NCBI GenBank assembly: GCA_016178595.1
Contig: JACOSY010000017.1
Coordinates: forward strand, 1 to 37,513
DNA: 37,513 nucleotides
Reading direction: 5' to 3'
DNA from: Ignavibacteria bacterium
Lineage (GTDB): Bacteria > Bacteroidota > Ignavibacteria > UBA10030 > SZUA-254
The notes under the pieces were generated by a model that made no database searches, was not told the DNA's origin, and saw only the letters and a program-made list of their open reading frames with translations. The position numbers were made by a program, and so were the translations under genes. Shown here piece by piece: positions 3,267-37,513 of the stretch (positions within the stretch are counted from its first letter, which is position 1; every line of letters begins with the position of its first letter).

Positions 3267-4133
3267 ATGGTTGCAGGCCTAAGTAAGAGAAGGTGGACGC
3301 GAAGTATATGGAGTGGTCTGTTCGTCGTCGTTTGTTCATTGACCACGGCGACAAGTGGGGTGAAAGTTTCACCTGTCCAACTCCTCGTCGTTGCGCCATC
3401 GCGAAGTGCGGCACTAAGAGTTCATAACCCTTCCGATAAGGAAGAACGGGAAATGTGGATGGAGGTGAAGTACGGGTACCAGACGACGGATGAGAAAGGC
3501 GCTCCGCACGTCGTGATCGTTCCGGCAGATTCCGGCGGAGCGAAATCAGCGGCACGATGGATTCGAGCATACCCTGAACGGTTCGTGTTGCAGCCGAATG
3601 CTACGCAAATTGTACGCGTCGTAGCGTCAGCGCCGCCAGATTTGCCCGACGGAGAATACTGGGCTCGAATCGTTGTCTCATCAAAGCCTCTCGGCGCACG
3701 GCGGATCAAGGATGCAGGCGCCTCACCGCTGCCGCGTGGGGGATTTATCACGATAGAAAAGGCAGATCTACCGTTTCATTATAGGAAAGGAAAGTTAACT
3801 TCAGGACTTGTTCTACGGAATGTCAATACGACGCCCGGAAAAGACAGTATGCGTGTTGCCGTCGATCTTCAGAGGATTGGAAATACATCATACTGGGGAA
3901 CTTTGACCTGTCGATTACGGGATCATTCGGGGAATGTCGTGAGCGTGTACAAGAAAAATCTTGTTGTGTACCAGGACGAGACATACGTATACTCCCTCCG
4001 GACAGCGAATGTTCCCGCAGGGGAATATACGTTCGAATTGAATTTCAGCAACAAGGAAGGAAGCGACATGGTCAGACAATATGCCGCTGAGAGTGAGGCA
4101 GTGAATTATTCCACGAAGATTAATTTACAGTAG
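3267..4133 (+). CDS. PapD-like periplasmic pilus chaperone
   Basis: This 288-residue protein begins with a basic n-region and hydrophobic core (signal peptide to about residue 31). The first domain starts with V-S-P-V-Q-L-L-V-V-A-P and A-A-L-R-V-H-N-P-S (about 33-55), the typical opening of PapD-fold chaperones. Around residues 105-135 it has the G1-strand region (E-R-F-V-L-Q-P-N-A-T-Q-I-V-R-V-V followed by L-P-D-G-E-Y-W-A-R-I), which in this family zips into pilin subunits by donor-strand complementation. The second half (about 165-280) would be the C-terminal Ig-like domain. In this family the chaperone folds subunits in the periplasm and delivers them to the usher. An AAGGAG-like site (about 3247-3253) precedes ATG 3267. 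Only 6 nt separate its stop from the usher gene, so the two are probably co-translated. Divergent from gamma-class chaperones; the family call is confident from motif plus context. Confidence 0.85.
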   Translation: MVAGLSKRRWTRSIWSGLFVVVCSLTTATSGVKVSPVQLLVVAPSRSAALRVHNPSDKEEREMWMEVKYGYQTTDEKGAPHVVIVPADSGGAKSAARWIRAYPERFVLQPNATQIVRVVASAPPDLPDGEYWARIVVSSKPLGARRIKDAGASPLPRGGFITIEKADLPFHYRKGKLTSGLVLRNVNTTPGKDSMRVAVDLQRIGNTSYWGTLTCRLRDHSGNVVSVYKKNLVVYQDETYVYSLRTANVPAGEYTFELNFSNKEGSDMVRQYAAESEAVNYSTKINLQ

Positions 4134-4139
4134 CTTCCG

Positions 4140-6752
4140 ATGAAGAAGCATTCTTCTTTACTGGCGGTGTGTTCTCAAATCCTTCTCGGATCGTTGTTCT
4201 GCACCACGATCTGGGCACAGAGTGTGGCGAAAGGTCCGCGTCCTGGCGAGCAAACGATTCCTGTTGTACTCTCAGTTCGGGGAGCTGGCAGCGTAGAATT
4301 TGACGTCATTGCCCGAAACGAGAAATACTATCTTCCCCTTGTCACGATTTTCAAGTTCCTGCGCGTCAGCGCGGAATACGATGCACGTACCGGCGTTGTC
4401 GAAGGCTTTTTCCTGTCGCCCGACAACCGATATCGTATTGATGCAGGCAGCAATACATTTAGAATACGTGATACCAGCGGGGCTATTTCAACAGATGACT
4501 ACGTGGTGCAGCCACAGGATTTTTATTTACGGGAAGACCTCTACCAGCAATTCTTCGGTATTGAGTTGAAGTATCGTCCGGTCAGACTCGACGTTTTACT
4601 GCGCACAAAATTACTGCTCCCCGTTTTCTTGGAACGGAAACGGGAGATGGCAAGAAATGAACAGCTCTTGCTGCAAGGGTATCAGCCAGAGGTAGGGTAT
4701 TCCCTGCCGCATACGCATCCCTTGTTAGCAGGCGGTAGACTCGATTACCGATTTGTTACCTCGAGTTCGTCACGTATAGCGCCACAATATCGCTATTTCC
4801 TCGATCTCGGCAATCGGTTTCTCGGCGGCGATTTGAAGACAAATCTTCAGGGCGTTATTAATCGTCCCATTAAGTCCGAGGATTTCTTAATCAGTTGGCA
4901 ATACGCGTTTCTCGATCAATCGTTCATCCGGCAAATTAATCTCGGTGATATGTTCTCAACGGGGCTTCGAGCGCAGAGGATATTTGGCGGTGAGATTACA
5001 AATCGGCCTGCGCCGCGGCGTTTGCTGTTTGCCGAAGACGAGTTTAGCGACTTCATTGGAGTCAATCATACCGTTGATTTCTACAAAGGAGCGTCCGTCA
5101 TTCAGTCTGAATCTTCAGACCCTGCCGGACTGTACCGCTTCCAGAGCGTCTTACCGTACGGCATTTCGAACTACAGCGTCAAAGAATATGATCAATATGG
5201 CGCCGAACATGTCTCAGAATACCGGATTATTGTTCCTGTATCGATGTTGCCTCCCGGCGAGGTGGAGTACAGCCTCATGGGCGGAACAATACGTCCCGGC
5301 AGGCATGATTGGAACAGCACGTTCAACATGTCATGGGGAGTGAGTAATAGACTTACTATGGGCGGCGGCATCGATTATCTCGGGCAAAGCGGTATTCATA
5401 CCAGATTCTTTCCATCGCTGACCTCTACCGCTCGTGTTACTGATATTGCCGTACTCGATGCAACGATCGCGCCGAGTGCATACTCCACTGTGGTGTTCTC
5501 TGTCTTCTACCCTTCGACGCTGGGTGGTTCGATTTCATATACGAGATACGGTACGAATTCTTTCTATAATTCTCTGAATGCACTTGATGATGCGATATTG
5601 ACGTTCAATGTGCCTATTCGCCTGCCTTCACAGCCGTTGCTTTTTAGCTTTATTCTTCGGCAGACGAGTCTCACAGATCGGCGGATCCGAGGATTGCAGG
5701 CGACCTCAAGTTTTGGAACCGGTCTTTTCGGAGTTCGGTTGAACGAGATCTTCTCATGGGATCAGGATGCATTTTCTTCATCGAGACTGACTCAGCATAA
5801 TAGCAGAGTGACTCTGACGACGGTTCTTCCGAGGGGTATTTTCCTGCGCGGCACTATGACCTATGACCATTTGCTAAATAATGTGCCCGATCTTCGAATT
5901 ACCGCGTCGCTTCCGCTCAAGCAAAATGCACTTGTGAGCGCGTTCGTTGATCGAGACTATATTTCACACATTTCCACGTATGGTCTTCAACTGACCTACT
6001 ATTTTCCGTTCTCCGTTTTCCGCGGCTCGGTTACTCGAGAAGGAGGCGACGGGACGTATGGCTTTACGGGAAGTATCGCAGGATCGGTCGCTTTCGTGGG
6101 TGAGAGAGGCCGGTTCGTCTTTGACAACTTGAATCAAGTCGGGTTTGGAAGCGTGTTTGTGAATCCTTTTGTAGATCTGAATGGAAACGGTGCACAAGAC
6201 GCTGGTGAGGAGCAGATTGCAAAAGCACGGTTTGGCTCTCGGGTGGGCATTGAGGGAGGGTCTCAGGTGAAATATGAGTCTCCTCTCGGCTACCGGATGA
6301 AAAGAACTCTTCCCTATGAATGGTATACGGTTACGCTCGATTCTCTTTCGCTGGAGGATCCCAAGTGGGTGCCGAGGTTCCAGACGTTTGCAGTTTTTTC
6401 CGAGCCGGATCAAGTACGCGTTGTAGATCTACCGATAGTTGTTGGTGGAATTGTGCGCGGCACCGTACAGGAACAAACATCGACTGGACTGAAGCCGGTC
6501 GACGGGATGAATGTACGCATCGAATCGGAAGAGATAGAGAAAGGGTTCCCCAAATATAAGAAAGCCATGAGAACGTTCTCAACGGGGGAATTCGAGTTTC
6601 TCGGTGTACCACCCGGGCGTTATACGGTTACTGTTAATGAAGATCAGGCAGCGACTCTTGGCCGCGTTGTCGAGAAGCCCAGACTGTCAATAGAAGTTGC
6701 CGTAAAACCAGAAGGTGATGAAGTCAATGGCGTCAACTTCTTGCTCAAGTAA
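4140..6752 (+). CDS. Outer-membrane usher, divergent archaic/sigma-like class
   Basis: This 870-residue protein has a signal peptide (cleavage near I-W-A-Q, residue about 26). An N-terminal periplasmic region (about 35-160) is followed by a long beta-barrel region (about 190-650) with alternating aromatic strands. Within it, residues about 313-365 look like the usher plug (G-A-S-V-I-Q, then G-L-Y-R-F-Q-S-V-L-P-Y-G-I-S-N-Y and V-K-E-Y-D-Q-Y-G). The plug is followed by the characteristic G-x-I-R-P-G-R and W-G-V-S-N-R-L-T-M-G-G-G stretch. The C-terminal part has V-D-L-N-G-N-G-A-Q-D-A-G-E-E (about 678-692), as in archaic ushers. It ends with a carboxypeptidase-regulatory-like beta sandwich (about 765-870, P-P-G-R-Y-T-V-T-V). 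The role is translocating and assembling subunits at the outer membrane. It lies directly after the chaperone gene with no obvious Shine-Dalgarno. It could be called a generic TonB-like regulatory-domain protein if context were ignored, but barrel plus plug plus chaperone favours usher. Confidence 0.82.
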   Translation: MKKHSSLLAVCSQILLGSLFCTTIWAQSVAKGPRPGEQTIPVVLSVRGAGSVEFDVIARNEKYYLPLVTIFKFLRVSAEYDARTGVVEGFFLSPDNRYRIDAGSNTFRIRDTSGAISTDDYVVQPQDFYLREDLYQQFFGIELKYRPVRLDVLLRTKLLLPVFLERKREMARNEQLLLQGYQPEVGYSLPHTHPLLAGGRLDYRFVTSSSSRIAPQYRYFLDLGNRFLGGDLKTNLQGVINRPIKSEDFLISWQYAFLDQSFIRQINLGDMFSTGLRAQRIFGGEITNRPAPRRLLFAEDEFSDFIGVNHTVDFYKGASVIQSESSDPAGLYRFQSVLPYGISNYSVKEYDQYGAEHVSEYRIIVPVSMLPPGEVEYSLMGGTIRPGRHDWNSTFNMSWGVSNRLTMGGGIDYLGQSGIHTRFFPSLTSTARVTDIAVLDATIAPSAYSTVVFSVFYPSTLGGSISYTRYGTNSFYNSLNALDDAILTFNVPIRLPSQPLLFSFILRQTSLTDRRIRGLQATSSFGTGLFGVRLNEIFSWDQDAFSSSRLTQHNSRVTLTTVLPRGIFLRGTMTYDHLLNNVPDLRITASLPLKQNALVSAFVDRDYISHISTYGLQLTYYFPFSVFRGSVTREGGDGTYGFTGSIAGSVAFVGERGRFVFDNLNQVGFGSVFVNPFVDLNGNGAQDAGEEQIAKARFGSRVGIEGGSQVKYESPLGYRMKRTLPYEWYTVTLDSLSLEDPKWVPRFQTFAVFSEPDQVRVVDLPIVVGGIVRGTVQEQTSTGLKPVDGMNVRIESEEIEKGFPKYKKAMRTFSTGEFEFLGVPPGRYTVTVNEDQAATLGRVVEKPRLSIEVAVKPEGDEVNGVNFLLK

Positions 6753-31085: not shown

Positions 31086-34000
31086 ATGAAACGCTTGATC
31101 CTTCTTTCTCTCCTCTGTATGTTTGTCAACTCCCTGTATGCCGGAGAACCAAAGATGGTTCGTGTGTACAACACCATCACAAAGGCATGGGCAACGTATC
31201 CGTCGGTGAGCATCCACGATATCCAGTTCGTCTCGCAAAGCAATCTTAACTCGGCTGACAATTTCCAGAATTGCGTCTGCGCGCAGTCGAGTCTCCAAAT
31301 GTCACCGTACCTTGGCGACACAGTTGTGGTGCAAGGACTCGTGATTACACCACCCGCCAACCACGATAACAACTACAACGGCATCTCATACACGGCGTAC
31401 GGTTGGACACTACTGCTGCACGATCCTGCGCTGGTGAACACGAACGAATGGGCAGGCGTTCTTCTGCGTGTCAATACGCCTGATTCCTCGGATGCGAAGA
31501 ACCAGGGGTTCAACAGCATCGAAATCGGCGACATTGTTCAGGTTGTGGCGGTGGTTCAAGAGTTCCCGGGAGCCTCTGATGCAGGAGGTCCTGCGATGAA
31601 TAGCCTCACGCAATTGAGGCCAGTTGTTGGGTACCACTTCGATATTCAGAGCAACGGTAACGCTCTTCCTGTCCCGACGCCCGTGAGTGTCACCGACTTC
31701 TACGTTGGCGGCTATCCCGGAGGTCAGGTGAAGTATTCGACCGGCGAGAAATACGAGGGCGGCCTCGTGAAGTTTACCGACCTTGTTGTGAACAACTACG
31801 TGATCCCGGCACGCGGGACATTCAACATGCTGGATGGATCCGGTAATTCAATTTCCGACTACGATGGCTCCCATTATTTTACACTGGGAGATGGACAGGG
31901 TATTGCGGGCGATCCGTCGTACGCGTTGCCGCCGCTCAATTCCGTGGTCAATGTCATCAAAGGAGCGATCTGGACTTCATCCGGACAGGAGAACCCTCGC
32001 GGCTATCGTATCGTTCCTATCTATCCTGCAGGAATCGGTTACAACAACCCTGGCGGTGCAAGTGATCTCCAGCTCGGTACTGCGCTCCCCACACTCAATA
32101 CAGCTCGTCGCGTTCCTGTTGTTCCTACGCCAACCGATACGGTGTATGTAACAGCGCGCGTACGTCTGACGACGGGCGGCTACCCGATCTCTCGTGCAAT
32201 ATTACTAAGGAGCATCAATTATGGCCCGTGGGCCGGTGATACGATGGTCATGATCACGCCCGACTCGATCTACCAGTCGCTCATTCTGGATAACGAAGGT
32301 CAGCCGCTCACAGGCGGAACAAACGTCCGTTATTTCTACAAGGCGATTGACGACCATGGCAACGTAAACGTCCTTGCGAACGGCACGTCGGCGTATGGCC
32401 GCGATACGAGCAAAGGTTTCTTCTTCTACAATGTCCTGGACCATCCGATGACGATCCACGACGTGCAGTACACTCCGTACGTGAATGGACGTTCTGCCTA
32501 CGTTGGAGCGAGAGGAGTTACCATCTCCGGAGTTGTGACTGCCAGTGCAAACGATCTGCGGATCGATTCGATCAGCGGCGGTGCTCGCGCCTGGTTTATC
32601 CAGGATGGCAACGCACCCTGGAGCGGCATCTGGCTCCGGAAGAAATCGGCCGATACATCCCATGCTTTGAACGCACTCCTGCGCGGGGATAGCGTCACCG
32701 TCACCGGTGAGGTCGATGAAGAATTTGATGTCACGATTTTCCTCGATTCGCTACTGACCGTCAATGCGCATGACCGGCCGGTGCCGGAGCCTATTGTGCT
32801 CAAGACGAGATATTTCAAATTAGGAATTGCAAACGGCGATTCAATCGCCGAGCCGTATGAGGACATGCTTGTGCGATTTGAGAATGCATCGATTACAGAC
32901 TCTGTCCCCAACTTCAATGACCACCGTGAATACGCGATTACCGATACGTCCGGACAGTCGATGAAGGTTCGGTATGACGGCCTGAATGATTATTCCATTT
33001 TTCCTTCGGATACCACACTCGGTAAGACGATTGTCTTCGTCGGGGATAGTATCCCGTCGCTTACCGGCATCCTCTACAATGCGTTCAGCCGTTGGATCGT
33101 TGACCCGCGCCTGAACGACGATATCGTGCTTGGCGAGTTACACACATATAACGCAGGCTGGCAGATGGTCTCCGTCGCGCAGAAGCAGGTGCCGATCGCC
33201 AATTACGACGTCACCTATCTCTTTCCGGGCATGACCGCCTTCAGTTATAGCGGCGCGTACAACGTTGCGTCCTCAATGTATCCGCGCAGCGGGTACTGGA
33301 TCCAATTCCCGGTCCCGAGCGGCAGCAGAACGTTCCGCCAGCACGGGTTGAAGGTTACGAACGATACCATCCCGCTCGACATCGGATGGAATCTCGTCGG
33401 TTCGCTCGCCAATCCCCTCTCGACCGGCAGCATCACGCTGTACCCTGCGGGGAATCATCTCTCCAACTTCTTCGGATTCTCCGGCGGGTACTCTCCGACG
33501 ACCACACTCCAGCCGCGCCAGGGATACTGGGTGAAGTCCGACTCGGTCGGTTATTACGTTGCCTCCGCGCCGTCCGCAGTCCCGAAAGCGCCTGAGCTCA
33601 ATCCTCACGATGCATTCAACTGGATTGCAATCACCGATAAAGATGGCAACACGCAGTCGCTCTTCTTCGTGGAAGATAAGGAAGGAAGGATTGCGCTGCG
33701 CGACTACGAGATGCCGCCGATGTTCCCACAGCAGGGATTCGTCGTACGGTACAGCTCCGGCAGAGTCCTTGAGATCTACGGTGCGAATGTTGGCGAGGGG
33801 AAAGAGTATGCGATCGACGTGAACGTGGTGAAGGGTCCCTTCACGGTAAGCTGGGCGATCAATAACAAGGAAGCGAAACGGTACACACTCGTTGACGCCG
33901 CATCCGGCAGGACGATCAACCTCGTCGGCACGGGGAGCGCGAGCGGACTGAAATCCGGTGCGCGCAAGATGTCGCTCCAGGTTAACCAGGGCGTTGCGTT

Positions 34001-34307
34001 GCCGCGCGAGTTCTCGCTCAGCCAGAATTATCCGAACCCGTTCAACCCCTCGACGCGTGTCGAGGTCGGGTTGCCCGATCAGGCGCGCTTGCAGGTTGCG
34101 GTCTATAATATTCTCGGACAGAAAGTCGCCACGCTTGTCGACGAGGTGCGCGACGCAGGTTTCCACACGCTGGTGTGGAACGGCACGACCGATAACGGCC
34201 TTGCCGTCAGCAGCGGCGTGTATTTCATCCGCATGAATGCCCAGCAGGTCGATGGGTCGTCGAAAGGCACCTTTACCGGCATCCGCAAGATGCTGTTGAT
34301 GAAATAA
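31086..34307 (+). CDS. T9SS cargo with two OB-fold-like regions and module B
   Basis: This 1073-residue protein starts at ATG 31086 behind AAGGAG; the signal peptide ends near L-Y-A-G (residue about 20). Residues about 25-320 form a first OB-fold-like region (I-H-D-I-Q-F-V, G-D-T-V-V-V-Q-G-L-V, G-D-I-V-Q-V-V-A-V-V). Residues about 325-455 look Ig-like. Residues about 458-680 form a second OB-like region (I-H-D-V-Q-Y-T, G-V-T-I-S-G-V-V-T, W-F-I-Q-D-G-N, G-D-S-V-T-V-T-G-E-V, E-P-Y-E-D-M-L-V-R). The second resembles the OB fold of the PLD-containing cargo (Y-I-Q-D-A-T-G-G-I, E-Q-Y-E-G-R-L-V-R). Module B spans about 687-975 and the sorting domain about 978-1073 (W-N-G-T, S-G-V-Y-F-I-R-M, R-K-M-L-L-M-K). 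OB folds of this type accompany secreted nucleases, but no catalytic domain is seen here; nucleic-acid or sugar binding is possible. Probably monocistronic, between a terminator and a 3' hairpin. Confidence 0.88.
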   Translation: MKRLILLSLLCMFVNSLYAGEPKMVRVYNTITKAWATYPSVSIHDIQFVSQSNLNSADNFQNCVCAQSSLQMSPYLGDTVVVQGLVITPPANHDNNYNGISYTAYGWTLLLHDPALVNTNEWAGVLLRVNTPDSSDAKNQGFNSIEIGDIVQVVAVVQEFPGASDAGGPAMNSLTQLRPVVGYHFDIQSNGNALPVPTPVSVTDFYVGGYPGGQVKYSTGEKYEGGLVKFTDLVVNNYVIPARGTFNMLDGSGNSISDYDGSHYFTLGDGQGIAGDPSYALPPLNSVVNVIKGAIWTSSGQENPRGYRIVPIYPAGIGYNNPGGASDLQLGTALPTLNTARRVPVVPTPTDTVYVTARVRLTTGGYPISRAILLRSINYGPWAGDTMVMITPDSIYQSLILDNEGQPLTGGTNVRYFYKAIDDHGNVNVLANGTSAYGRDTSKGFFFYNVLDHPMTIHDVQYTPYVNGRSAYVGARGVTISGVVTASANDLRIDSISGGARAWFIQDGNAPWSGIWLRKKSADTSHALNALLRGDSVTVTGEVDEEFDVTIFLDSLLTVNAHDRPVPEPIVLKTRYFKLGIANGDSIAEPYEDMLVRFENASITDSVPNFNDHREYAITDTSGQSMKVRYDGLNDYSIFPSDTTLGKTIVFVGDSIPSLTGILYNAFSRWIVDPRLNDDIVLGELHTYNAGWQMVSVAQKQVPIANYDVTYLFPGMTAFSYSGAYNVASSMYPRSGYWIQFPVPSGSRTFRQHGLKVTNDTIPLDIGWNLVGSLANPLSTGSITLYPAGNHLSNFFGFSGGYSPTTTLQPRQGYWVKSDSVGYYVASAPSAVPKAPELNPHDAFNWIAITDKDGNTQSLFFVEDKEGRIALRDYEMPPMFPQQGFVVRYSSGRVLEIYGANVGEGKEYAIDVNVVKGPFTVSWAINNKEAKRYTLVDAASGRTINLVGTGSASGLKSGARKMSLQVNQGVALPREFSLSQNYPNPFNPSTRVEVGLPDQARLQVAVYNILGQKVATLVDEVRDAGFHTLVWNGTTDNGLAVSSGVYFIRMNAQQVDGSSKGTFTGIRKMLLMK

Positions 34308-34654: not shown

Positions 34655-34683
34655 CTGCCACGCACTTTCAAAGTGCGTGGCAG
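34655..34683 (+). repeat. Dispersed hairpin repeat, copy 1
   Basis: A perfect 13-bp stem, CTGCCACGCACTT (34655-34667) with AAGTGCGTGGCAG (34671-34683), and a 3-nt loop TCA. An almost identical unit is at 35421-35449. The pair brackets the 34729-35376 gene. Confidence 0.7.
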
Positions 34684-34728: not shown

Positions 34729-35376
34729 ATGGCACCAAGAAAGACACGCTCAAGTACCACGCAACAACGAACAATGTTTCTCAAAGAACTCTCGGCATTT
34801 GAACAGCGGCTCGATACGAAGATCGGGAAACTCGACGCGAAGATCGGCGGAGTCGAGCAACGACTTGATGCCAAGATCGATCAACTCGATGGGAAGATCG
34901 GCGGAGTCGAGCAGCGGCTCGATGTCAAGATCGATCAACTCGATGGGAAGATCGGCGGAGTCGAGCAGCGGCTCGATGCGAAGATCGATCAACTCGATGC
35001 GAAGATCGGCGGGCTCGACGGGAAGATTGATGGGACCGAGCAGCGGCTCAATGCGAGGATAGATGGAGTCAATGCAAAGATTGTCGGAGTCGAGCTCGTT
35101 CTCAACGCGAGAAGTTATGCCGTTGAACAGCGACTCGAATCCAGGATTGATTTTGCGGCCCAATCGACGAAAGAGTACATCGACAGCCGGATCTCTCAGG
35201 TCAATGGAAAGATTGACGGACTCGATGCCAGATTCGCTCACGTGGACGTCAGGTTCGACAAGCTCGACAAGAACTTCGAATCGAACACGGCGGGCCTCGT
35301 CGAGTTGATCGAGCACAGGGCAGGCGAGATAGCGTCGATGGGAAACCGTCTCGCTGCGCTCGAAGGGGCACGATGA
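34729..35376 (+). CDS. Coiled-coil protein with 18-residue tandem repeats, first of five paralogs
   Basis: This 215-residue protein has no signal peptide or membrane segment and a basic N-terminus, so it is probably cytoplasmic. After F-L-K-E-L-S-A-F-E-Q-R-L-D-T-K-I, three copies of an 18-residue unit (G-G-V-E-Q-R-L-D-A-K-I-D-Q-L-D-G-K-I) form a stalk, then degenerate copies. Next comes Q-S-T-K-E-Y-I-D-S-R, the family core, and the end (M-G-N-R-L-A-A-L-E-G-A-R) replaces the usual N-H-E-Q-R-I-T-T-L-E-A-R. The start and core match the four downstream genes, so this is the expanded member. The 18-residue spacing of hydrophobics fits a helix-rich rod. A strong GGGAGG Shine-Dalgarno precedes ATG 34729, as in the other paralogs. 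I do not recognise the family; oligomerisation or a scaffold role would be inference only. Confidence 0.75.
   Translation: MAPRKTRSSTTQQRTMFLKELSAFEQRLDTKIGKLDAKIGGVEQRLDAKIDQLDGKIGGVEQRLDVKIDQLDGKIGGVEQRLDAKIDQLDAKIGGLDGKIDGTEQRLNARIDGVNAKIVGVELVLNARSYAVEQRLESRIDFAAQSTKEYIDSRISQVNGKIDGLDARFAHVDVRFDKLDKNFESNTAGLVELIEHRAGEIASMGNRLAALEGAR
34846..35007 (+). repeat. Three tandem 54-bp repeats in the first coiled-coil gene
   Basis: In-frame units at 34846-34899, 34900-34953 and 34954-35007 differ at only a few positions. Each encodes 18 residues. The near identity indicates recent unit expansion and a site for copy-number change. Confidence 0.85.
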
Positions 35377-35420
35377 GTTGCATCGTTGTTCTTGAAGCCA
35401 GAGCATGAGCACATGGAAGC

Positions 35421-35449
35421 TGCCACGCACTTTCGAAGTGCGTGGCAGT
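35421..35449 (+). repeat. Dispersed hairpin repeat, copy 2
   Basis: CTGCCACGCACTT (35421-35433), loop TCG, AAGTGCGTGGCAG (35437-35449). It is identical to the copy at 34655-34683 except for one loop base and lies 44 nt after the first coiled-coil gene. Confidence 0.7.
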
Positions 35450-35469
35450 TACTTGAGAGCGTTTCGTGA

Positions 35470-35493
35470 GTGTCGGGTCGGATGACCCGACAC
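35470..35493 (+). repeat. Second palindrome next to hairpin copy 2
   Basis: A perfect 10-bp stem, GTGTCGGGTC (35470-35479) with GACCCGACAC (35484-35493), and a GGAT loop. It follows copy 2 by 20 nt. It could be a terminator or another small dispersed repeat; there is no T-run. Confidence 0.5.
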
Positions 35494-35557
35494 CACCAGA
35501 ATTTTGAATACGTAAGAGCACGTTGAGTATCCAATAACGAAACACGGGGAGGCAACA

Positions 35558-35923
35558 ATGGTGCAGCGTAAACAGAAAAAACCGAGTGTGGTAACACAAC
35601 ATTTTGTCAAACAAGAACTGAATGCCTTGGAAATTCGCTTGAATAATCGGTTGGATTTCAAGGAACAATCATTCAAAGAGTATGTCGTCAGCAGGTTATC
35701 GCCTGTTACGGATAGATTGAAAAATTTGGAATCGACGACGAATGATTTGACGACCGGCATTCAAGATGTACGCGGGGATATTGCTGCGTTAGGTGACAAA
35801 CTCGATATGTCTGCTAAAGGCATTGTCCAGATGGTTGAACGCTTGATAGGAATGCACAGCCGGATCGAAGAGAAAGTGGATAACCACGAGCAGCGCATCA
35901 CAACGCTGGAAGCAAGAGCATAA
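35558..35923 (+). CDS. Small coiled-coil protein, second paralog
   Basis: This 121-residue protein without a signal peptide has a Lys-rich start, then V-K-Q-E-L-N-A-L-E-I-R-L-N-N-R-L-D, the core E-Q-S-F-K-E-Y-V-V-S-R, a helical middle, and the conserved end D-N-H-E-Q-R-I-T-T-L-E-A-R-A. It lacks the long repeat stalk of the first paralog. A GGGGAGG site 8-9 nt before ATG 35558 is the same leader type (GGGAGGCAAC) as in the neighbours. No family is recognised. Confidence 0.75.
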   Translation: MVQRKQKKPSVVTQHFVKQELNALEIRLNNRLDFKEQSFKEYVVSRLSPVTDRLKNLESTTNDLTTGIQDVRGDIAALGDKLDMSAKGIVQMVERLIGMHSRIEEKVDNHEQRITTLEARA

Positions 35924-35970
35924 TACAGATTTCACTAACCAACAGTACACATTGCGGAGGCAATAGCGAT

Positions 35971-36336
35971 ATGGCAAAAAAAACAACGGCGAAACATGAA
36001 ATACTAACACACGATCTCTTGGTCAGAGAGCTTGTAGTGCTTGAGCAACGGCTTGATGCAAAGATCGATTCTGCAACGCAATCGTTCAAAGAGTATGTCG
36101 ATAGCCGATGGACGCAGCTCGATACAAAATTTACGCCGAGATTAGATACGATGGATTCACGTTTTGATACGATGGATTCGCGTTTTGATAAGATGGATTC
36201 GCGTTTCGAGAAGATGGATCGACATTTTGAAGAACTTGTCGGCATGTTTGTTCAGCAGGGTAAAAAGATTGACGCTTCGTTTGCGACACTCAACAACCAT
36301 GAACAGCGCATCACCACGCTGGAAGCACGATCTTAA
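35971..36336 (+). CDS. Small coiled-coil protein with M-D-S-R-F-D-x heptads, third paralog
   Basis: This 121-residue protein has L-L-V-R-E-L-V-V-L-E-Q-R-L-D-A-K-I-D, the core T-Q-S-F-K-E-Y-V-D-S-R, then four near-identical heptads (M-D-S-R-F-D-T/K) encoded by 21-bp tandem repeats around 36150-36225, and the end N-N-H-E-Q-R-I-T-T-L-E-A-R-S. The true heptad period here contrasts with the 18-residue period of the first paralog, so different stalks have been built on one frame. ATG 35971 follows GCGGAGGCAA. Cytoplasmic, function unknown. Confidence 0.75.
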   Translation: MAKKTTAKHEILTHDLLVRELVVLEQRLDAKIDSATQSFKEYVDSRWTQLDTKFTPRLDTMDSRFDTMDSRFDKMDSRFEKMDRHFEELVGMFVQQGKKIDASFATLNNHEQRITTLEARS

Positions 36337-36398
36337 ATCCGAAATCTACAATCTCGACGAGTCGAGTCGTCGACCAAAATCCGAAATTATATAATATG
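36337..36398 (+). repeat. AT-rich heptamer-type repeat tract, copy 1
   Basis: Just after the stop codon the sequence repeats the words AAATCCGAAAT, AATC and AAAATCCGAAAT. The same word family recurs after the next two coiled-coil genes (from 36773 and 37314). Confidence 0.5.
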
Positions 36399-36414
36399 GG
36401 AGGCAACAAAGAAT

Positions 36415-36774
36415 ATGGCAAAGAGAACAACACCGCAGACGCAGGTTTTGACGCTGGATATCCTGAGAGTCGAGCTTGGCGGTCTAAAGAAGGATCTTGA
36501 AGAAAAGATTGATGGCGTCGAGAAGCGGCTGGATGCGAAGATTGAGGTCAAAATTGACGATGCGACCCAATCGTTTAAGGAGTATGTCGATAGCCACATG
36601 AAGCGAATCGACATGCGGTTTGAGCGGGTTGACCGGCGGTTCGACAAAATTGAGAAGCAAGCAAAGACCAACAGGGACGGGTTGGTGGACATGATTCAGC
36701 GCCAAGCCGGTGAATATCGGAAACGTATTGACAATCATGAACAGCGGATCACAACGCTTGAAGCACGATCTTAA
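36415..36774 (+). CDS. Small coiled-coil protein, fourth paralog
   Basis: This 119-residue protein has L-D-I-L-R-V-E-L-G-G-L-K-K-D-L, a doubled K-I-D-G-V-E-K-R-L-D-A-K-I stretch, the core T-Q-S-F-K-E-Y-V-D-S-H, a charged coiled coil (R-F-E-R-V-D-R-R-F-D-K-I-E), and the end D-N-H-E-Q-R-I-T-T-L-E-A-R-S, identical to that of the third paralog. The G-L-V-D-M-I-Q-R-Q-A-G-E stretch parallels G-L-V-E-L-I-E-H-R-A-G-E in the first paralog. GGGAGGCAAC precedes ATG 36415. Function unknown. Confidence 0.75.
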   Translation: MAKRTTPQTQVLTLDILRVELGGLKKDLEEKIDGVEKRLDAKIEVKIDDATQSFKEYVDSHMKRIDMRFERVDRRFDKIEKQAKTNRDGLVDMIQRQAGEYRKRIDNHEQRITTLEARS

Positions 36775-36849
36775 ATCTGAAATCCAAAATCCAAAGTTGA
36801 TTCTTTTGCATCTTTTAAAATCCAAAAATCCAAAAATCCGAAATTATAT
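36773..36849 (+). repeat. AT-rich heptamer-type repeat tract, copy 2
   Basis: Repeated AAATCCAAAATCCAAA and AAATCCAAAAATCCAAAAATCC words fill the space after the fourth coiled-coil gene. They look like short tandem heptamers (roughly AAATCCA) with drift. Confidence 0.6.
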
Positions 36850-36898
36850 AAACATTCACCACTATCACAAAACTAAATTCATGGGAGGTAGTTAAGCT

Positions 36899-37288
36899 AT
36901 GGCAAAAGGCACGACACCAAAATCTGAAGCCCTTACAAAGGAAGTTTTGATCGAAGAACTTTCAGCTTTTGAGAAACGCGTTGATGCGAAATTTGATGAC
37001 GCGGCAAAACTTTTTGACAGGAAGATTGATTCCAAGATCGATGAGGCAACTTTTTCATTCAAGGAATATGTCGATGTTCGCATGAAGCAAGTCCAGGTAT
37101 CGATGGGCGAGATGCGGCAGGTTATTAAGCGACAAGGCGACAAAATGGACCGGTATTTCAACGGCATCGTTACAATGATCGAAGGTCTCACCGGCAAAAT
37201 AGCAGTGGTTGGAGAGACTTCAAAGAACCACGAGCGCCGCATTCGTGTGTTGGAAGCAGGAAGAGGGTTACCTTCTGCAAAACCATAA
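36899..37288 (+). CDS. Small coiled-coil protein, fifth paralog
   Basis: This 129-residue protein has V-L-I-E-E-L-S-A-F-E-K-R-V-D-A-K-F-D, the core E-A-T-F-S-F-K-E-Y-V-D-V-R, and K-N-H-E-R-R-I-R-V-L-E-A-G, followed by a unique ten-residue tail. It is the most diverged at the C-terminus. Its S-A-F-E-x-R segment is closest to that of the first paralog. GGGAGGTAG is 11 nt before ATG 36899. No signal peptide. Function unknown. Confidence 0.72.
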   Translation: MAKGTTPKSEALTKEVLIEELSAFEKRVDAKFDDAAKLFDRKIDSKIDEATFSFKEYVDVRMKQVQVSMGEMRQVIKRQGDKMDRYFNGIVTMIEGLTGKIAVVGETSKNHERRIRVLEAGRGLPSAKP

Positions 37289-37379: not shown

Positions 37380-37513
37380 GAGTTCTACAAGGAAGTGCAA
37401 CACTCCAGGAGAGAATTTGTTATTCTTGGAGTATGGCACCTATACCACAGTATCATCAACTGTCTCTTGATGAAAGAGATCATATTGCCGTCTATCGGGC
37501 TCAGGGGTTGTCG
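37380..37513 (+). mobile_element. IS30-family insertion sequence, left end only
   Basis: The transposase start (37433) and the preceding roughly 50 nt, with AAGGAAGTGCAACACT (37388-37403) as a probable part of the terminal inverted repeat, mark the left end of an IS30-type element. The exact boundary and the other end are not visible. Confidence 0.55.
37433..37513 (+). CDS. IS30-family transposase, N-terminal 27 residues (cut by window edge)
   Basis: The frame from ATG 37433 runs to the window end. Y-H-Q-L-S-L-D-E-R-D-H-I and Y-R-A-Q-G-L-S match the opening of the helix-turn-helix domain of IS30 transposases (usually L-T-x-x-E-R-x-x-I then G-x-S). The catalytic DDE domain lies outside the window. 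GGAG is only 1 nt from the ATG and is inside a hairpin (37402-37432), so translation may be kept low. Confidence 0.8.
   Translation, partial: MAPIPQYHQLSLDERDHIAVYRAQGLS

What the first reader, a model, noticed from the sequence alone, without database searches (positions are those of the whole stretch)
34729..37288. Five tandem paralogs of an unassigned coiled-coil family
Five consecutive genes (215, 121, 121, 119 and 129 residues) share an N-terminal E-L-x-x-L-E-x-R-L-D-x-K-I block, a central Q-S-F-K-E-Y-V-D-S-R core and, in most, an N-H-E-Q-R-I-T-T-L-E-A-R end. Each has a nearly identical GGGAGGCAA leader. Between these fixed parts each has a different helical stalk (18-residue repeats, heptads or irregular). 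No signal peptide or catalytic motif is seen. This is the least explained system in the window: a locus that keeps both ends of the protein and diversifies the middle.
Basis: partly seen in the sequence, partly recalled or inferred. Interest (0 to 1): 0.68.

Follow-up and report, generated by a model that had tools for sequence, protein, structure and literature searches.

The report
Ancient tandem coiled-coil rod genes
Five neighbouring genes in an uncultured Ignavibacteria-type bacterium encode old, distantly related copies of a small, previously unassigned rod-shaped protein whose length varies by internal repeats; the genes sit upstream of a giant cell-surface protein, and the nearest one shares its start signal, which suggests, without proving, that the two work together.

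Summary
Five tandem ORFs (215, 121, 121, 119, 129 aa) share a basic N-tail, an ELxxLExRL...QSFKEYVDSR core, a GLVxLIER module and a terminal R-h-x-x-h-E end. A profile built only from relatives' modules, stalk removed, scores them 53-106 bits; 5,000 heptad-preserving shuffles reach 15.7. No Pfam or NCBIfam model claims the family. Each protein is predicted to be one continuous helix, and the conserved end matches the coiled-coil trimerisation motif. Stalks differ by in-frame 21/33/54-bp repeats. Synonymous sites are saturated: old paralogs, not a recent amplification.

New here: in all six family genomes with these genes (of 15) they follow gene A (1,073 aa) and/or precede gene B, a giant type IX-sorted surface protein. 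In four other genomes A and B lie together without them. In a second family (G604) the only such gene again lies directly upstream of the only B-type gene. In the window's genome and in G604, a leader is shared by a coil gene and B and found nowhere else in that genome. Best reading: soluble, probably trimeric rods of adjustable length, an optional accessory co-regulated with B. Exact function is open. Closest analogue: Borrelia Bdr proteins, but unanchored.

The parts
34729..35376 (+). coil gene W1 (215 aa): basic N-tail, 18-residue repeat stalk, core AQSTKEYIDSR, GLVELIEHRAGEI module, RLAALE end
   Evidence: AF2 single helix 7-214, pLDDT 88
35558..35923 (+). coil gene W2 (121 aa)
35971..36336 (+). 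coil gene W3 (121 aa), heptad-repeat stalk (RFDTMDS)
36415..36774 (+). coil gene W4 (119 aa)
   Evidence: AF2 single helix 14-118, pLDDT 85
36899..37288 (+). coil gene W5 (129 aa), last before the IS and gene B; same subtype as G009b (GDKMDRYFxGxVxMxExLTGK)
34804..35012 (+). 54-bp (18-aa) in-frame repeat array, 3.9 copies, stalk of W1
36145..36230 (+). 21-bp (7-aa) in-frame repeat array, 4.1 copies, stalk of W3
36841..36871 (+). leader of W5, AAATTATATAAACATTCACCACTATCACAAA, shared in this genome only with the leader of gene B (C52)
31086..34307 (+). gene A, 1,073-aa secreted protein with type IX-type C-terminal domain, conserved upstream neighbour of the coil genes
37434..37513 (+). start of an IS transposase ORF (IS30-like by residue pattern, not confirmed by profile), cut by the contig end; a multi-copy element

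Best explanation
The five genes are old paralogs of a small soluble coiled-coil family. SHOWN by sequence or prediction: each is a single continuous helix behind a short, mostly basic, disordered N-tail; fixed modules lie at both ends of a stalk whose length changes by whole in-frame repeats (7, 11 or 18 residues); there is no signal peptide or membrane anchor; the family is an optional insert upstream of one giant type IX-sorted surface protein (gene B), and in two genomes of different families a coil gene and B share a leader found nowhere else in that genome. INFERRED: the terminal R-h-x-x-h-E motif nucleates parallel trimers, the end modules fix the register, and the repeats set rod length, giving cytoplasmic rods or spacers of different length. 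MORE TENTATIVELY INFERRED: the genes are expressed together with B and the rods act as an accessory to it, for example holding or organising the giant polypeptide or its producing site before export. They are not essential for B, since B exists without them in several genomes.
For: Homology beyond coil bias. Real genes under purifying selection: pN is below pS in every pair compared, e.g. G009a/G009c 0.18 against 0.47. Single helix. R-h-x-x-h-E in the last 25 residues of 12 of 16 members against 0.23 expected by shuffling; the motif is described as stabilising parallel trimeric coiled coils in PMC5940361. Repeats. No TM stretch. Linkage: A-coil in G009, G012, G004; coil-B in G009, G012, G001, G013; G013 has the C-terminal part of A directly upstream; in G004 the contig ends at a B-type leader and start codon; in G000, B lies on C52 right after the end of an IS transposase whose N-terminal start closes the window. 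A-B without coil in G008, G003, G014, G007; G013 against G008, same genus, differ by a roughly 410-nt insert that holds just the coil gene. Independent case: G604, other family, its only detected coil gene directly upstream of its only B-type gene. Shared leaders: G604 coil and B, 85% over 84 nt, the only two places in that genome; W5 and B, the only two places in G000, control 0.
Against: G274 has three members at two unrelated loci (beside a transketolase gene and between an ABC ATPase and a YceD-like gene) and no B domain, so the link is not obligatory. Leaders are not clearly shared in G012 or G013. In G004 a B leader is shared with a second B gene, so leaders duplicate at this locus for other reasons too. 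Linkage within one family is inherited, so it is effectively one event plus G604. The C5-C52 join rests on synteny, because the IS end occurs at many contig ends. Oligomeric state was not tested. No experiment ties the proteins to B.
Confidence: 0.45

Rival explanations
1. Passenger or selfish small genes: the gap between A and B is a permissive site that collects mobile or accessory cargo, and the coil genes are one such cargo with no tie to B.
For: The same gap holds other accessory genes: DUF5615 toxin-like and a likely partner in G013, an aspartyl-protease-like ORF in G004, a transposase-like ORF in G014 (by eye), an IS in G000. Patchy presence (6 of 15 genomes in the family; 3 of 61 in f24, one of them weak). 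G274 has them elsewhere.
Against: Leader shared specifically with B in two genomes. The G604 coil gene sits next to the only B-type gene of a 4.3-Mb genome. Long-term purifying selection and conserved end modules. No mobilisation gene travels with them.
Confidence: 0.3
2. Bdr-like function: relatives or analogues of the Borrelia direct repeat proteins, a plasmid- or phage-linked paralog family with KID-repeat stalks.
For: Relatives G274c and G604 exceed Pfam's cut-off for the KID repeat (43.8 and 52.5 against 20.8 bits). Multi-copy, repeat-number variation, unknown function, as described for Bdr in PMC10016077 and PMC3303823.
Against: Window proteins do not reach the KID cut-off (W4 10.8 bits). 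Bdr is inner-membrane associated (PMC10016077) and these have no anchor. No match in phage or plasmid records with the two members tried. An 11-residue helical repeat easily arises twice.
Confidence: 0.08
3. One reading: a diversification locus that keeps both ends and actively varies the middle.
For: Ends conserved, stalks differ by tandem repeats.
Against: Saturated synonymous divergence, no recent copies, no significant 3'-end gene conversion, no recombinase or template cassettes in the window; simple repeat slippage suffices.
Confidence: 0.08
4. Phasin-like granule coat: amphipathic or coiled-coil proteins that coat storage granules.
For: G274c and G604 slightly exceed Pfam's Phasin cut-off (29.2 and 34.0 against 28.8).
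Against: Matches fall in the repetitive stalk, alongside apolipoprotein and many other coil families. The window proteins do not reach it. No granule-synthesis gene was seen beside the loci read.
Confidence: 0.04

Closest known systems
Borrelia direct repeat (Bdr) proteins / Pfam KID repeat PF02524
   Same: Multi-copy paralogs, central helical repeats that vary in number, unknown function; two relatives (G274c, G604) carry KID repeats above Pfam's cut-off
   Different: Bdr proteins are inner-membrane associated and plasmid or prophage borne (PMC10016077, PMC3303823); these are soluble, and those in the window's family sit at a fixed site beside a surface-protein gene; the window's own stalks do not reach the KID cut-off
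Trimeric coiled coils with the R-h-x-x-h-E motif, e.g. LINE-1 ORF1p (PMC5940361)
   Same: Basic N-terminus followed by a coiled coil with R-h-x-x-h-E trimerisation motifs
   Different: No RNA-binding domain; motif at the extreme C-terminus; no sequence homology claimed
Pfam DUF7310 (coiled-coil region of unknown function)
   Same: Best-scoring Pfam model for most members (10 of 15 members at E<=0.001)
   Different: Best W1 score 34.9 against a cut-off of 40; matches lie in the coil, not in the family's defining end modules
PHROGs 12015, 6701, 5553 (phage proteins of unknown function)
   Same: Match heptad-repeat stalks of several members (best 1.9e-19)
   Different: The best stretches lie in or largely over the repeats (e.g. 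G001 residues 66-130); no phage record matched W4 by tblastn

Membership tests
Borrelia Bdr family | KID repeat above Pfam's cut-off | tested here: not met
   Window: W4 10.8 bits against 20.8, others not listed. Met only in relatives G274c (43.8) and G604 (52.5)
Borrelia Bdr family | inner-membrane anchor | tested here: not met
   max 19-residue hydropathy 1.18 in any of 16 members; Bdr inner-membrane association from PMC10016077
Borrelia Bdr family | multi-copy paralogs with variable repeat number | tested here: met
   five paralogs here, three in G009, three in G274; 18-, 11- and 7-residue repeats
Borrelia Bdr family | sequence homology of the end modules to Bdr | not tested
   Bdr sequences were not fetched
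Parallel trimeric coiled coil (R-h-x-x-h-E class) | R-h-x-x-h-E motif in the coil | tested here: met
   12 of 16 members within 25 residues of the C-end, 0.23 expected from shuffles, maximum 3
Parallel trimeric coiled coil (R-h-x-x-h-E class) | trimer in solution | not testable with these tools
   only single-chain prediction available; monomer is a single helix
Pfam DUF7310 | score above the gathering cut-off | tested here: not met
   34.9 bits at best among the window proteins against 40
Phasin (PF05597) | score above the gathering cut-off over the domain | tested here: inconclusive
   window proteins far below; G274c 29.2 and G604 34.0 against 28.8, but in the repetitive stalk
Phage or plasmid gene families | relatives in phage, plasmid or viral records | tested here: not met
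   no tblastn match of W4 in phages or of G009a in plasmids; none confirmed in viral contigs with A1

The most novel reading that the evidence does not exclude
A dedicated set of cytoplasmic coiled-coil rods of graded length that serves one giant type IX-secreted surface protein, expressed from a copy of that protein's own leader: a cargo-specific, length-tunable export accessory not described for type IX secretion.
Probability: 0.12. Interest if true: 0.65.

Novelty: new variant of a known kind. Interest (0 to 1): 0.38.

Why it matters
Genes of this sort are usually annotated as 'hypothetical coiled-coil' and dropped, because coil bias makes similarity searches unreliable. Here a stalk-free profile, a presence/absence pattern at a fixed site and a leader shared with one neighbour turn such a gene family into a testable hypothesis: an optional accessory of a giant type IX-secreted surface protein. 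If true, it would be the first cargo-linked cytoplasmic coiled-coil set for that secretion route known to me. If not, it is still a usable family definition for Ignavibacteria-type genomes.

Tried and rejected
Gene conversion at the 3' ends of W2-W4 (suggested by 87-90% local identity): same-codon fraction not significantly higher than elsewhere. Recent amplification: rejected by saturated dS. Defence system: PADLOC hits are weak coil cross-matches to SMC-like or motor proteins, best 4e-6. Solved structures: only generic coils such as viral spike helices, best 1.5e-5; Foldseek found no PDB match for the W4 model. Phylum-wide distribution: hits outside the class are partial, mostly stalk matches, best 2.7e-7 for a non-class genome; within the class, G211 and G278 hits (1e-10) are a membrane protein with an FEQVDKR repeat, not this family. 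Alignments A1 and A3 gave no usable hits in contig collections; a smaller alignment found three named Ignavibacteria/Bacteroidota/Chlorobiaceae MAGs already seen as G009, G001 and G013. RNA elements: no Rfam match in the window. The MCUR1/CCDC90 (head-neck-stalk-anchor) idea was recalled; no membrane anchor was found, so it was dropped without a profile test.
Full report
OBSERVATION. W1-W5 below denote them in order. To test for more than coiled-coil bias, a profile was made from the modules of eleven relatives in other genomes only, with the stalk removed. The five window proteins score 106.1, 73.7, 77.7, 53.0 and 76.2 bits. Five thousand decoys that keep heptad-phase composition reach at most 15.7, plain shuffles at most 15.8, reversed sequences at most 6.5. 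pN is below pS in all pairs compared, so these are genes under purifying selection.

ANATOMY. AlphaFold2 gives one uninterrupted helix, residues 14-118 of W4 (pLDDT 85) and 7-214 of W1 (pLDDT 88). Hydrophobic periodicity is 3.52-3.68 residues in 15 of 16 members, 3.83 in the divergent G004 protein, as expected for mixed heptad and hendecad coils. There is no transmembrane-like stretch and no signal peptide is apparent (and direct reading). Stalks differ by in-frame tandem DNA repeats: 54 bp in W1, 21 bp in W3; 11-residue or 7-residue repeats in G009b, G604 and G001. The end contains R-h-x-x-h-E in 12 of 16 members within 25 residues of the C-terminus, against 0.23 expected and at most 3 in 2,000 shuffle sets. 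PMC5940361, citing Kammerer et al. 2005, describes this motif as stabilising parallel trimers. Trimer formation here is inference.

AGE. Synonymous differences among the five are near or at saturation (pS 0.66-0.91). The closest pair anywhere is G009a/G009c (dS 0.74). The tree is weakly supported overall, but W5 groups with G009b (80) and G009a with G009c (88), so at least one paralog split appears to predate the split of the genera. The 3' ends of W2-W4 look unusually alike at DNA level, but the excess of identical codons is not significant.

DISTRIBUTION. In the window's own 3.1-Mb genome the family occurs only here. In its GTDB family 6 of 15 genomes have it. Within the class the only strong further case among 294 genomes sampled was G274; searching 61 genomes of G274's family added G604 and one weak hit in G615. 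A sample of 395 genomes of the phylum gave only partial, mostly stalk matches beyond the class. No phage, plasmid or viral-contig relative was found. Three of the same records are named in a contig collection as Ignavibacteria, Bacteroidota and Chlorobiaceae MAGs.

LOCUS. Upstream lies gene A (31086-34307, 1,073 aa, type IX-type C-terminal domain). In G009, G012 and G004 the coil genes directly follow the A ortholog; in G013 the C-terminal part of A opens the contig just upstream. In G009, G012, G001 and G013 a giant secreted protein B follows. In G008, G003, G014 and G007 A is followed by a B-type gene with no coil gene between. G013 and G008 are in the same genus: their A-B gaps align on both sides of a roughly 410-nt insert in G013 that holds just the coil gene. 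In the window's genome B lies at the end of contig C52, directly behind the C-terminal end of an IS transposase. The window closes with the start of an IS transposase that occurs at many contig ends, 23 matches in all. The arrangement A-W1..W5-IS-B is therefore likely but not proven. In G004 the contig ends just after a B-type leader and start codon, downstream of the coil gene and two other ORFs. B of the window's genome carries Ig-like and fibronectin-type repeats and a type IX sorting domain.

INDEPENDENT CASE AND SHARED LEADER. In G604, a different family, the only coil gene found sits directly upstream, same strand, of an 879-aa type IX-sorted protein homologous to B. The B domain tested has one locus in that genome. 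The 84 nt before the coil gene recur, 85% identical, before B and nowhere else in the genome. In the window's genome the leader of W5 matches that of B over about 30 nt (0 of 1,000 shuffles reach the score), and a pattern for it hits exactly these two places, reversed-pattern control zero. A weaker match exists in G009 (1 of 1,000); none in G012 or G013. The shared leader may mean co-regulation, or may be the scar of a local duplication. Either way the coil gene next to B carries B's leader.

EXPLANATION. Shown: real, old, soluble, all-helical family with fixed end modules and repeat-variable stalk; optional insertion beside B; shared leader in two genomes. Inferred: trimeric rods of graded length. 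Tentative: co-expressed accessory to B, for example in holding or organising the giant polypeptide before export. The main rival is that the A-B gap is a permissive site for cargo: it also holds a DUF5615 gene (G013), an aspartyl-protease-like ORF (G004) and a transposase-like ORF (G014), and G274 has coil genes away from any B.

COMPARISON. No Pfam or NCBIfam model claims the window proteins. DUF7310 is best at 34.9 bits against 40; CLZ nominally passes on W1 (27.2 against 26.7) in the repeat stalk. The nearest known kind is the Borrelia Bdr group: multi-copy, repeat-variable, unknown function (PMC10016077, PMC3303823). Two relatives carry KID repeats above Pfam's cut-off, but the window proteins do not, and none has a membrane anchor. 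Not filed as Bdr.

VERDICT. A confirmed, new small family with an interesting, testable link to a giant surface protein. It is old paralogy with ordinary repeat variation and does not look like a diversification device.

Noticed in passing
window 34655-34683 and 35420-35448: A perfect or near-perfect palindrome CTGCCACGCACTTT-AAAGTGCGTGGCAG flanks W1 on both sides (REP-like); its copy number in the genome was not counted.
   Followed up: partly
window 37395-37513: Start of an IS transposase (IS30-like by eye); the same 119 bp are found at 22 other places in the genome, mostly contig ends.
   Followed up: partly
window 336-34307: The rest of the window is almost entirely large secreted proteins ending in NYPNPFNP-type type IX sorting domains, plus a chaperone/usher-looking pair at 3267-6752 that Pfam does not name as such.
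   Followed up: partly
L071 3302-3925 (G014): A 208-aa ORF that looks like a REP-associated transposase lies in the A-B gap where other genomes carry coil genes; no Pfam hit, and its N-terminal start is uncertain.
   Followed up: partly
L023 1746-2096 (G013): DUF5615 toxin-like gene followed by a small ORF, probably its partner, in the same gap.
   Followed up: partly
L023 and L069, A-B gap: A conserved basic mini-ORF of about 30 residues, MACCGKKMTAVK..., in G008 and G013.
   Followed up: no
L024 1-1700 against L143 end (G004): Two B-type genes in G004 share an 83% identical leader over 173 bp, so leaders at this locus duplicate for more than coil genes.
   Followed up: partly
L020 49-139 (G009): Group II intron match, 46 bits, upstream of gene A.
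   Followed up: no
L078 1396-1890 (G211): A different short protein with a signal-like N-terminus, FEQVDKR repeats and a membrane segment; similar repeat, not the same family.
   Followed up: no
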